Positions 45,040 to 49,752 of a stretch of DNA of 64,000 nt are shown piece after piece; positions within the stretch are counted from its first letter, which is position 1, and each line of letters starts with the position of its first letter. Source of the DNA: Powellomyces hirtus. Lineage: Eukaryota > Chytridiomycota > Chytridiomycetes > Spizellomycetales > Powellomycetaceae. Location: the NCBI GenBank assembly GCA_025526995.1, contig JAHLKG010000004.1, forward strand, positions 930,001-994,000, written 5' to 3'. The notes under the pieces are model-generated. The model worked only from the letters and a program-made list of their open reading frames with translations. It did not search any database and had not been told where the DNA came from. The translations under genes were made by a program, and so were the position numbers.

Positions 45040-46283
<1,244 letters not shown>

Positions 46284-46627: not shown

Positions 46628-49600
46628 TCAATAGCCGTTCAGCTTGAGGAACTCGCGTTTAAGATCATCCCATACGATCTTCACTGTCGGTTCTTCGTGT
46701 CGAATCTCCTTGACGCGCTGCATCCACTTGTTTTTGTAAACGTTGCATATTTTGCTGGCCAGAAAACACTGGTTTTCGATAGATGCCGCAACGTATTCCA
46801 AGAGTTTCCTTTCATGCACAAGATTGATAAGTTGGTTTGTATGCGATCCGACATTTGTCAGGCGAACGTACCCTCGTTGTTCTTCATCCAATATCCCATC
46901 TAACATACCCCAAGCCCATGACGCGTCGTCGTCCGGTCTCATCGAGATCCCCAGTGCTTTCAACAGTTGCAGGTAGCCTCTCTCGCGATCATCACAGGAG
47001 AGGTCGGCAACGTGATGTGTGTCCGAAATGATCAGCGGATGCTGTGTCTTGGCCATTTCCCTGGCACTGACTGAACCAACGTTCGGTCAGTTTCTGACGA
47101 GGAGCTATGGAGACACCAGTGTTCGTACCAAATGTCACTTCTCTGTTGGTTTGGCGGCCCAGTAATTCGAAGCGCGACACAGTAACATCCTTGATTCGCC
47201 GTCCAGCACCAGTACGGAATCCGAAACCTTCCTCATCCGAACCGCTTCCTATGTTGTCCACGGTGTACCGTGACTTCTTGGACCTGGAATAATCCTCTCC
47301 ACCGACTATGCCAAAGTCCAGCGATGACTCGCCCCCGATGGTCCGTTTCTGCTTGACGGGAGCCACCCAGCTCCCGTCCTTCAACCGCAGATTGCTGCGT
47401 CGCCGGTGAGATTGTGGCTCTTCTCGAGGAAACAAAGAAATGAACCTACCCTCCAGCTTCGAATTGCTTGGCGCTCATGAAACCACCCGCTTCGGCAGGC
47501 GGGGCCAGAGCTTTCGTCTTTGCTTTTGCGAGTGTTTTGGGGTCTTTGCACACATCACATCGCTTGGACGGGCACAAAACTTCTGTTGTTAGCCCACTGG
47601 CGCCAAAATATTGATCTATGAAAACATGTCTGCACGTTTTGACATTTTCGCAGTATTCTACCATCTGCAGGGGCCAAGGTGAGCTGTAGAAGGCCAAGAT
47701 TTGGTTCGGATTTGTACATTACTTTACTGAAGCTTTCGAACGCATTTCTTCGCGTATTTTCGGTCGAACTCGTGTCTTGCTGAAGGAGGTAAATTTGCCG
47801 ATCACGATCTTGGTGACTGTAATAGAGCACGCACCGGGAGGCCTTGCCATCTCGGCCCGCCCGACCGCTCTCCTGATAGTACGCTTTTGAAATATCAGCA
47901 CATCAATAGACCGAGGGAAGATAAATACATCCAGCCACCTACCTTCAAGAGACTTGGAGAGATCCCAATGTATCACGAACCGCACGTCTTTTTTGTCTAT
48001 GCCCATCCCGAAACTGATGGTGGCAACAACCACGTCGACCACATCGATTTGCGGTGTGACGTTCTCCGACACTTTGTCCGAAGGCATGACAGTACTGAAT
48101 GCATCCGTGCCGCTCCAAGCTGTCAACACTGCCCTTCTCTCTGTATCCTTCAGTCCAGCATGATAACTTCTGGCGCGGACTCCATCCGCCCGGAGTTTCT
48201 CACTAACGTCATCGCAACTACTTCGCGTGGCACAATAGATAATGCCGCATACACCCTCCGCCCGCTCCCCAGTCGTGGTGCCCTGAGCCAACCTCTTTTT
48301 CCGATTATCATAGATTGTTTTGAGGAAATGCAGTACGTCCTGATAGGGATCGTTGGACGTATCCGGAGTCTTAAATCTGACCTCATAGTGCAAGTTCGCT
48401 CGGTTGAAGGTAGAGACAAACACAGCAAGCTCGGGTGGAGCGGGCAGATGTAGTTGTTTGATGATGTCTGCACGGACGCTGTGGTAATGTTGGCTCAGGA
48501 ATTTCAAGCGTCGCTGTTCAAATAAGGATTTTTTACCTTTCAGTCGCTGTGGCAGTGAGGGCCATAATGGGTGTAGAAGGAAAGTTATCTTTGAACCATC
48601 GGAGTTTCCGATAATCGGATCTGATTGGTTGATCACTTTGAGTCCGCAAGCAAACTCGGATTCTCGGCTGGTAATATAGTACGCACCGGAAATCATGGCC
48701 CCATTCGGATATGCAGTGTGCCTCATCCACCACCAGTCGTGCAAGCATGGATCGGGTATGAAGTTTGATTAAGGTAGAGCGGAAAGCTTCCGTCGCCATC
48801 AATTCTGGAGTCTGAGTTTGCAGTCAACAGGCAGAACATGTTTGAGAAACGCTTCGGCTGCTTACAACTATTTCGAGACATCAGTGTCTGAACAAACGTG
48901 CCGCCCCAACTGTGTCACTACTTTGCCTACCGTATAATAGTTTGACGGTAGGTTGCGGACGAGTAAGATCTAATAGGACCTGGGAAACCGACCTTGAGCA
49001 CAAGGCACTTTCCAGTTTATGACATGTAGCACACAAACCTCCTTTCTCTCTTTCGCCTTCAGCACAGAGTTGAGAGTCGCAGCATTGACGCCAATCTTGT
49101 TCAACGCGTCCACTTGATTTTGCTATCATTGCCCCAATCAGATCAACCATCTTACGCGGCGGAAAACCCGGCACAAACTCACGATCAGGGCTGGATGGAC
49201 CAGAAGCCATTGTCAGACATACGTAGCATCAAAAAAACATGCTAAACCAGGGAAATACCGAGAAGTGGAGACACCACTAAAGTGACACCGTTATCAACAA
49301 CCGCGGGCAGTTGGTAGGTGAGCGACTTGCCGCCACCTATTGTGTCAATTCGCGGTTGAGGCTCTGGATAGACTCAAGACTTTTCATGCAACATGACGCA
49401 ACCTGTCGGCATGAGTACTAAACAATCTTTGCCTGAGAGCAAGAGTTTAGCCGTCAGTCAGACGGAGAGAGGCGGCCGCTAAATTTCACAAGCATACCAG
49501 CCAGGGTGGCATTTATGACATCTTCTTGCATTCCACGGAAGTCATCCAGACCAAAAACTGCATTGCAACCTAACGTTAACCAATTCGGATAGCATGCTCT

Positions 49601-49752
49601 CCACGATGCGGTTGAGAGACTCGTCAACTACCTTTCTGCAGCGCTTCCCTAATCCCTGGTTTCGAGTTGCATGCTGCTGCCTTGGGCTGTGGACAACTCG
49701 CGAAGGCAAGAGTGGGTCTCTTTGCAAAATACGAGCTGATGGGTCTTGACAT
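46628..49752 (-). CDS. RecQ-family DNA helicase with two microexons
   Basis: 3'-5' DNA helicase for recombination repair in the nucleus. Fifteen exons: 49752-49632, 49557-49498, 49432-49403, 49336-49259, 49190-49183 (8 nt), 49122-49039, 48979-48931, 48867-48866 (2 nt), 48811-48687, 48620-48537, 48478-47943, 47883-47723, 47664-47450, 47394-47129, 47070-46628; 753 residues in frame. Motif 0 [14 protein letters not shown], motif I MPTGGGKS, Ia VVSPLLALIQNQVDAL, YVTPEL, DEAH box [16 protein letters not shown], motif III ALTATAT, motif [45 protein letters not shown]. The RecQ zinc domain follows ([10 protein letters not shown]...CPSKRCDVC). The C-terminal region (about 200 residues) matches no domain I know. 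The short helicase core resembles RECQL5-like forms. Confidence 0.9.
48866..48867 (-). other. Putative 2-nt microexon of the RecQ gene
   Basis: The dinucleotide TT lies between aaatag and gtaagc. It joins G from the upstream exon to make a Val codon, giving LLYVTPEL, the expected RecQ sequence. The alternative single 119-nt intron shifts the frame. The flanking introns would be 63 and 54 nt, each with a CTGAT or TTGAC branch-like site. Confidence 0.6.
49183..49190 (-). other. 8-nt microexon of the RecQ gene
   Basis: CCCTGATC on the coding strand, flanked by ccatccag on the 5' side and gtgagt on the 3' side. With the G left by the upstream exon it encodes Ala-Leu-Ile, restoring the conserved SPLLALIQNQ motif Ia. 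Flanking introns are 68 and 60 nt, both normal for this genome. Confidence 0.8.

What the first reader, a model, noticed from the sequence alone, without database searches (positions are those of the whole stretch)
48812..48930. Possible 2-nt microexon in the same RecQ gene
Seen: the 119-nt gap between the codons for LLY and TPEL leaves the frame off by two nucleotides. A TT flanked by aaatag and gtaagc restores LLYVTPEL and makes two ordinary introns of 63 and 54 nt, each with a branch-like site. Inference: either a 2-nt exon or stepwise (recursive) splicing at this point. Exons this short are at the edge of what has been reported.
Basis: partly seen in the sequence, partly recalled or inferred. 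Interest (0 to 1): 0.82.

Follow-up and report, generated by a model that had tools for sequence, protein, structure and literature searches.

The report
Two-nucleotide exon in a fungal helicase
A DNA helicase gene of a chytrid fungus appears to contain an exon only two letters long, which gene annotation missed and which is needed to keep a conserved stretch of the protein intact; exons this short are known but very rare.

Summary
On the minus strand a 119-nt gap (48930-48812) separates the codons for LLY from TPEL in an otherwise intact RecQ (RECQ5-like) gene of the chytrid Powellomyces hirtus. The frame is short by two nucleotides. A TT at 48867-48866, between AAATAG and GTAAGC, restores LLY-V-TPEL and leaves introns of 63 and 54 nt (the gene's other 13: 55-74). 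Of 8 one-intron and 27 two-intron in-frame GT-AG solutions (preceding intron fixed), it has the best two-intron splice score and alone gives LLY[V/I]TPEL. Shuffles match it in 0.6-0.8%. The public model of this gene is scrambled exactly here. The models of the two other named Powellomycetaceae found (Geranomyces, Fimicolochytrium) and of Quaeritorhiza also deviate here; 231 of 234 spanning proteins have exactly three residues between Y and E. I favour a real 2-nt exon, spliced by intron definition in two successive steps. Zero-nucleotide recursive splicing and a [D1,2] stwintron fit less well. No RNA was available; splicing is inferred. One-nt exons are known in Arabidopsis and Fusarium: a new member of a known kind. 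In passing: the gene's 8-nt exon matches plant RECQ3's in size and phase.

The parts
46628..49752 (-). RecQ-family (RECQ5-like) helicase gene, 16 exons, 15 GT-AG introns, intact 732-aa product
   Evidence: First model of 736 aa; intron 1 acceptor moved to 49558 to match relatives; the joined exons translate to 732 aa with one terminal stop. RecQ subfamily model TIGR00614 458.5 bits for residues 1-507; best solved relatives human RECQ5
48931..48979 (-). Upstream exon (49 nt), ends ...AAACTATTATACG (K-L-L-Y-G..)
   Evidence: conserved with relatives
48868..48930 (-). First intron, 63 nt, GTAGGC...CGAAATAG; donor score 3.84, acceptor 2.07 (just below the weakest, 2.2, of the 18 other introns)
48880..48884 (-). 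Branch-like CTGAT in the first intron, branch A 13 nt before the 3' splice site
   Evidence: motif match only
48866..48867 (-). Proposed 2-nt exon TT; completes the valine codon G|TT
48812..48865 (-). Second intron, 54 nt, GTAAGC...AAACTCAG; donor 4.08, acceptor 3.67 (intronic bases only)
48823..48827 (-). Branch-like TTGAC in the second intron, branch A 12 nt before the 3' splice site
   Evidence: motif match only
48687..48811 (-). Downstream exon (125 nt), starts ACTCCAGAATTG (TPEL), carries the DEAH box
48805..48811 (-). ACTCCAG: alternative in-frame acceptor CCAG|AA; with donor 48930 it makes one 126-nt intron and LLYEL (VTP lost), the form annotated in Geranomyces and Quaeritorhiza
   Evidence: acceptor score 3.38
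49183..49190 (-). 8-nt exon CCCTGATC of the same gene, phase 1, gives SPLL-ALI-QNQV
   Evidence: of 236 proteins 222 have normal spacing there, 5 deviate and 9 could not be aligned there

Best explanation
A constitutive 2-nt exon (TT, 48867-48866) lies between two ordinary short introns of an intact RecQ helicase gene in the chytrid Powellomyces hirtus. Shown: the sequence, the frame requirement, that this is the only enumerated solution restoring the conserved residues, and deviating gene models at the same junction in related genera. Inferred mechanism: the gene's introns are 54-74 nt and are recognised by intron definition, so exon length does not matter for pairing the sites. Two spliceosomes are unlikely to sit on two nucleotides at once, so the introns are removed one after the other. 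Removing the 63-nt intron first joins G to TT and presents ...ACGTT|GTAAGC as the donor for the second intron. Removing the second intron first would leave AAATAG|TT in competition with the nearby CCAG|AA acceptor. Inclusion is required for the helicase: skipping TT shifts the frame to an early stop, and the in-frame one-intron route with the best splice score (to CCAG|AA) deletes VTP from the conserved YVTPE stretch.
For:: best splice score (13.66, next 12.35) of 27 two-intron solutions and the only one of 35 one- or two-intron solutions that gives LLY[V/I]TPEL; shuffles match it in 0.59-0.79%; of 234 proteins spanning the junction, 231 have exactly three residues between Y and E, the first being V in 199 and I in 19. 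The joined gene is intact. The RecQ model scores 458.5 bits on the proposed product (residues 1-507 given) against 436.7 on the public model P0001. P0001 comes from a contig of the same length as the window's (1,713,957) and equals the proposed 732-aa product except that 17 residues VLLDLTRPQPTVKLLYV are replaced by 13, ILLVRNLPSNYYT: one 119-nt intron, bought by reading the preceding exon in another frame from 48969. Geranomyces variabilis reads LLYELM, what the CCAG|AA acceptor gives; Fimicolochytrium jonesii inserts 14 residues but ends ...Q-V-TPEL, compatible with CAAG|TN as the exon's left edge (inference). Both belong to Powellomycetaceae with Powellomyces.
Against: No RNA evidence. No DNA of the relatives was read, so conservation of the exon itself is inferred from protein models. 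LLYEL is annotated in two genera (P0002, P0022), so real use of the CCAG|AA acceptor cannot be excluded. The acceptor AAATAG scores below all 18 comparison introns, and with exonic positions included the donor GTT|GTAAGC scores lowest of 20; the 18 comparison introns were scored with the matrix they trained, which favours them. The matrix is small. The enumeration kept the preceding intron fixed, so the public model's route is not among the 35. The branch motifs are not specific. A plain AG|NN|GT arises in 20% of shuffles.
Confidence: 0.86

Rival explanations
1. One 126-nt intron from donor 48930 to the acceptor CCAG|AA (48805); the protein reads LLYELMATE and lacks VTP.
For: In frame, canonical GT-AG, best-scoring of the 8 one-intron solutions (7.2), acceptor 3.38. 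The same form is annotated in Geranomyces variabilis (P0002) and Quaeritorhiza haematococci (P0022).
Against: It deletes three residues from a stretch that 231 of 234 spanning proteins keep at full length. The intron would be about twice the gene's usual 55-74 nt. It leaves the AG|TT|GT pair, with branch-like motifs in both halves, unexplained. It is also what an annotation program that cannot place a 2-nt exon might choose (inference).
Confidence: 0.07
2. A 1-2 nt error in the assembly, or a frameshifted gene, with one ordinary intron of about 119 nt.
For: No reads were available to check base quality.
Against: Three other genera (Geranomyces, Fimicolochytrium, Quaeritorhiza) have deviating models at the same junction; the rest of the gene is intact; a single intron would be about twice the gene's norm; chance of so good a valine solution is below 1%.
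Confidence: 0.04
3. A [D1,2] spliceosomal twin intron: the 63-nt intron splits the donor of an outer intron as G|TTGTAA, both steps remove GTT, and the protein reads LLYTPEL without V.
For: The layout fits formally, since G precedes the inner intron and T follows it, and the frame is kept. Such introns are known in fungi (PMC12403724, start of abstract seen in a search listing).
Against: The outer donor GTTGTA scores 0.81 against 4.08 for GTAAGC three bases on. The product lacks the V/I residue: none of the 234 spanning proteins has two residues between Y and E.
Confidence: 0.03

Closest known systems
1-nt exon of Fusarium CYP621A (Nelson and Syed 2026, PMC12940212; parts 1 and 2 of 3 read)
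   Same: Ultra-short exon in a fungus, inside a conserved motif, in an apparent intron of more than twice the usual length (139 against a median of 56 nt), found because flanking exons are out of phase; nearly all public models wrong at the spot
   Different: 1 nt, ascomycete P450, with RNA reads; here 2 nt, chytrid helicase, no RNA
1-nt exons of Arabidopsis APC11 (Guo and Liu 2015, PMC4674806; parts 1 and 2 of 3 read) and of plant APC11 and VPS55 (Yu et al. 2022, PMC8831610; passages read)
   Same: Exon too short for exon definition; Guo and Liu propose intron definition with successive removal of the two introns
   Different: Plants; APC11 exon tested with cDNA and reporter constructs
Stwintrons, [D1,2] type (PMC12403724; start of abstract in a listing only)
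   Same: Two nested introns removed in succession at what looks like one intron position
   Different: In a stwintron no exonic base remains between the introns; here TT is needed in the mRNA
Zero-nucleotide recursive splicing (review PMC13149111, passages read)
   Same: Stepwise removal is likely
   Different: Recursive sites are AG|GT with no base between, typically in introns over 10 kb; here the whole gap is 119 nt
Plant RECQ3 microexons, cluster 18 (8 nt, phase 1) and cluster 5 (4 nt, phase 2) (PMC8831610, passage read)
   Same: Same helicase family carries microexons; the 8-nt phase-1 exon matches the window gene's 8-nt exon in size and phase
   Different: The passage names no 2-nt exon in RECQ3; YVTPE is not among the 15 indel positions listed for 120 plant proteins

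Membership tests
Internal microexon (ultra-short coding exon) | Flanked by AG upstream and GT downstream, with complete introns on both sides | tested here: met
   AAATAG|TT|GTAAGC; introns 63 and 54 nt
Internal microexon (ultra-short coding exon) | Needed to keep frame and a conserved motif | tested here: met
   Skipping gives a frameshift and stop; 231 of 234 spanning proteins keep the Y-to-E spacing
Internal microexon (ultra-short coding exon) | Conserved in orthologues at the DNA level | tested here: inconclusive
   Only proteins were available; both other named Powellomycetaceae models deviate at this junction
Internal microexon (ultra-short coding exon) | Present in mature mRNA | not testable with these tools
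   No RNA data at hand
[D1,2] stwintron | Inner intron splits the outer donor between bases 1 and 2, and no exonic base remains | tested here: not met
   Layout fits formally, but the outer donor GTTGTA is weak (0.81) and the product would lose a residue that the 231 normal-spacing proteins have; only RNA would settle it
Zero-nucleotide recursive splicing | AG immediately followed by GT inside a long intron | tested here: not met
   Two bases lie between AG and GT; the gap is 119 nt
RecQ-family helicase (host gene) | RecQ family model above cut-off; conserved helicase motifs | tested here: met
   TIGR00614 458.5 bits, cut-off 219.8; in 16 aligned sequences GKS, DEAH and GRAGRD are invariant

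The most novel reading that the evidence does not exclude
The 2-nt exon is older than the family Powellomycetaceae (its trace also shows in Quaeritorhiza) and has been kept as an obligatory two-step splicing node inside a helicase motif. The same gene also keeps an 8-nt exon of the same place, size and phase as that inferred for plant RECQ3, so ultra-short exons in one gene family would have persisted since before the split of plants and fungi.
Probability: 0.25. Interest if true: 0.72.

Novelty: new member of a known kind. Interest (0 to 1): 0.52.

Why it matters
It would be a 2-nt exon in an early-diverging fungus and, going by a 2026 paper that calls its 1-nt Fusarium exon the first for a fungal gene (PMC12940212), one of few exons under 3 nt proposed in fungi. 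It sits where a splicing error destroys the protein, in introns short enough for minigene work, so the order of removal and the lower size limit under intron definition become directly testable. It also points to an annotation failure: the public helicase models of three related genera (Powellomyces, Geranomyces, Fimicolochytrium) deviate at one junction, each in a different way.

Tried and rejected
Training a splice model from automatically found introns failed: and the iterated matrices lost the donor consensus and were discarded. Only 18 introns read by hand (13 of this gene, 5 of the neighbouring Rab-type gene, focal pair left out) were used for scoring (first table). A first gene model missed one intron and stopped at residue 153; one search added it. 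Searches used a 736-aa model with intron 1 ending 12 nt too early (GCNA inserted); this was corrected to 732 aa and does not touch the junction. Single introns with non-canonical ends were considered by eye only: none of those tried gives V or I at the junction. The BLM-type paralogue (C6) has YVTPE inside one exon of the public model, so it gives no parallel case. One search covered a motif absent from its reference; redone. In one search the commonest indel positions of plant proteins were 74 (9 of 120; these are one-residue insertions) and 317 (7 of 120, not examined), so the 8-nt exon site (6 of 120) is not the top one. DNA of Geranomyces, Fimicolochytrium, Quaeritorhiza or Spizellomyces was not compared: the collections on offer are described as prokaryotic, viral, plasmid or metagenomic, metagenome scans are capped at zero, and I ran no scan of genome contigs or viral contigs. 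A paper search for a published 2-nt exon under five phrasings returned one paper, unrelated by its title; chytrid + intron + microexon returned two papers, not opened, whose titles and abstract starts do not concern chytrid microexons. [quoted passage not shown]

Full report
What is there. The window lies in contig C4 (1,713,957 bases) of a 29.3-Mb assembly. The best database match of the gene, P0001, is a Powellomyces hirtus protein whose longest contig has the same length. It equals the proposed product in 127 residues before and 588 after one segment, the one discussed here. The gene reads on the minus strand from 49752 to 46628: 16 exons, 15 GT-AG introns, and joined exons that translate to 732 aa with a single terminal stop. 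It belongs to the RecQ family (TIGR00614, 458.5 bits for residues 1-507 against a cut-off of 219.8), and the best solved relatives are human RECQ5.

The gap. Upstream exon ...AAA CTA TTA TAC G; gap 48930-48812; downstream exon ACT CCA GAA TTG. The frame needs 2 nt (mod 3). I enumerated canonical GT-AG solutions between the fixed upstream exon start (48979) and MATEAF, introns at least 40 nt, no stop: 8 with one intron, 27 with two. None of the one-intron solutions gives LLY[V/I]TPEL. Of the two-intron solutions the TT exon has the highest summed splice score (13.66; next 12.35) and is the only one that gives LLYVTPEL. Scores come from matrices of 18 introns with the two focal ones left out. 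The preceding intron was held fixed, so the public model's route (another acceptor there) is outside this list.

Chance. In 20,000 dinucleotide-preserving shuffles of the gap interior, any AG|NN|GT with both introns at least 45 nt occurs in 20.4%, one as good as observed in 1.7%, one encoding valine in 8.0%, and one encoding valine and as good as observed in 0.59% (0.79% with a 40-nt minimum). In 243 genomic 119-mers with donor- and acceptor-like ends, 27 have AG|NN|GT (4 as good as observed), 2 the valine form, 0 the valine form with so good a score. The sites are not all strong: the acceptor CGAAATAG (2.07) is just below the weakest of the 18 others (2.2), and when exonic bases are scored too, the donor GTT|GTAAGC is the weakest of 20. 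Intronic bases alone give it 4.08, in the middle of the range.

Relatives. Of 236 proteins from two searches (the 120 best listed of each), 2 do not span the junction (P0021 Rhizophlyctis, P0040 Neocallimastix) and 234 do. Of these, 231 have exactly three residues between the Y and the E; the first is V in 199, I in 19, T in 4 (one of them the scrambled P0001), A in 4, L in 4, C in 1. Three deviate: Geranomyces variabilis (LLYELM, VTP missing), Quaeritorhiza haematococci (LLYELM) and Fimicolochytrium jonesii (14 residues inserted, then VTPEL). P0001 has normal spacing but the wrong residues: it reads the preceding exon in another frame from 48969, which makes one 119-nt intron fit. Powellomyces, Geranomyces and Fimicolochytrium are genera of one family, Powellomycetaceae; Quaeritorhiza is a chytrid outside it. 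Spizellomyces (P0003, P0005), Phlyctochytrium (P0006) and Gaertneriomyces (P0121) read normally. Not every row had a name, so further members of the family could hide among unnamed rows. The simplest reading (inference) is that the three Powellomycetaceae share the 2-nt exon and each annotation worked round it differently. The Fimicolochytrium insert ends in Q-V, which allows CAAG|TN, the expected left edge of such an exon; its DNA was not seen.

How it probably works (inference from established splicing knowledge and PMC4674806, parts 1 and 2 of 3 read). The introns are short and can be paired by intron definition. Two spliceosomes are unlikely to occupy a 2-nt exon together, so removal is successive. 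Removal of the 63-nt intron first leaves ACGTT|GTAAGC and avoids the competing acceptor CCAG|AA; which order is used is unknown (PMC4674806 cites a potato 9-nt exon where the second intron left first). Skipping TT gives LLYDSRIDGDG... and a stop; retaining either intron also gives a stop.

Rivals. A single 126-nt intron to CCAG|AA (LLYEL) is the serious one because two genera are annotated so; it costs three conserved residues and an intron of about twice the usual length. A [D1,2] stwintron fits formally but needs the donor GTTGTA (0.81 against 4.08) and loses a residue that the normal-spacing proteins keep. An assembly error does not explain why other genera deviate at the same junction.

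What is known. One-nt exons: Arabidopsis APC11 (PMC4674806), plant APC11 and VPS55 (PMC8831610, passages), Fusarium CYP621A with RNA reads (PMC12940212, parts 1 and 2 of 3), the last described by its authors as the first for a fungal gene. [quoted passage not shown] A Trichoderma paper (PMC11121469, passages) calls work on microexons in fungi limited. My searches listed no paper that, by title or abstract start, reports a 2-nt exon in a chytrid. So this is a new member of a known kind.

The 8-nt exon. The same gene has an 8-nt exon, CCCTGATC at 49190-49183, phase 1, giving SPLL-ALI-QNQV. PMC8831610 lists an 8-nt, phase-1 microexon (cluster 18) in plant RECQ3 without giving its place in the passage I read. 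Of the 120 proteins listed for a plant query, 6 have an indel at PLI-ALM-ENQ (P0103, P0237, P0246, P0315, P0331, P0339), several reading like a retained donor (PLI-GK, PLI-GEK, ALM-VR, ALM-VE). This is not the commonest indel position: 74 has 9 (one-residue insertions) and 317 has 7, not examined. Five chytrid models deviate at the same place (P0004, P0005, P0014, P0018, P0037). This suggests that the plant exon sits at the same position, size and phase; shared ancestry or independent gain cannot be told apart here.

Noticed in passing
49183-49190 (introns 49191-49258 and 49123-49182): 8-nt exon, phase 1 (SPLL-ALI-QNQV), same size and phase as the plant RECQ3 microexon cluster 18 of PMC8831610; 6 of 120 plant-query proteins and 5 chytrid models carry indels at the same place. 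Possibly an exon shared by plants and chytrids.
   Followed up: partly
46628-49752, public model P0001: The public Powellomyces hirtus protein for this gene has 13 wrong-frame residues (ILLVRNLPSNYYT) in place of the 17 proposed residues before TPEL, which fits a missed 2-nt exon.
   Followed up: yes
45040-46283, minus strand: A Rab-type GTPase gene (ends read by eye; family recalled) lies about 345 nt downstream of the RecQ gene on the same strand; in Batrachochytrium salamandrivorans a RecQ and a Ras-type domain are annotated as one protein (P0008), so the gene pair may be conserved and the fusion a model error.
   Followed up: no
48805-48811 and Quaeritorhiza P0022: Quaeritorhiza haematococci, outside Powellomycetaceae, is annotated with the same LLYEL form as Geranomyces; either the 2-nt exon is older than the family or the CCAG|AA acceptor is really used there.
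   Followed up: partly
P0021 (Rhizophlyctis rosea): The model jumps from KLLY to DF-SVREDIIKQL, losing the DEAH region; again the break begins right after LLY.
   Followed up: no
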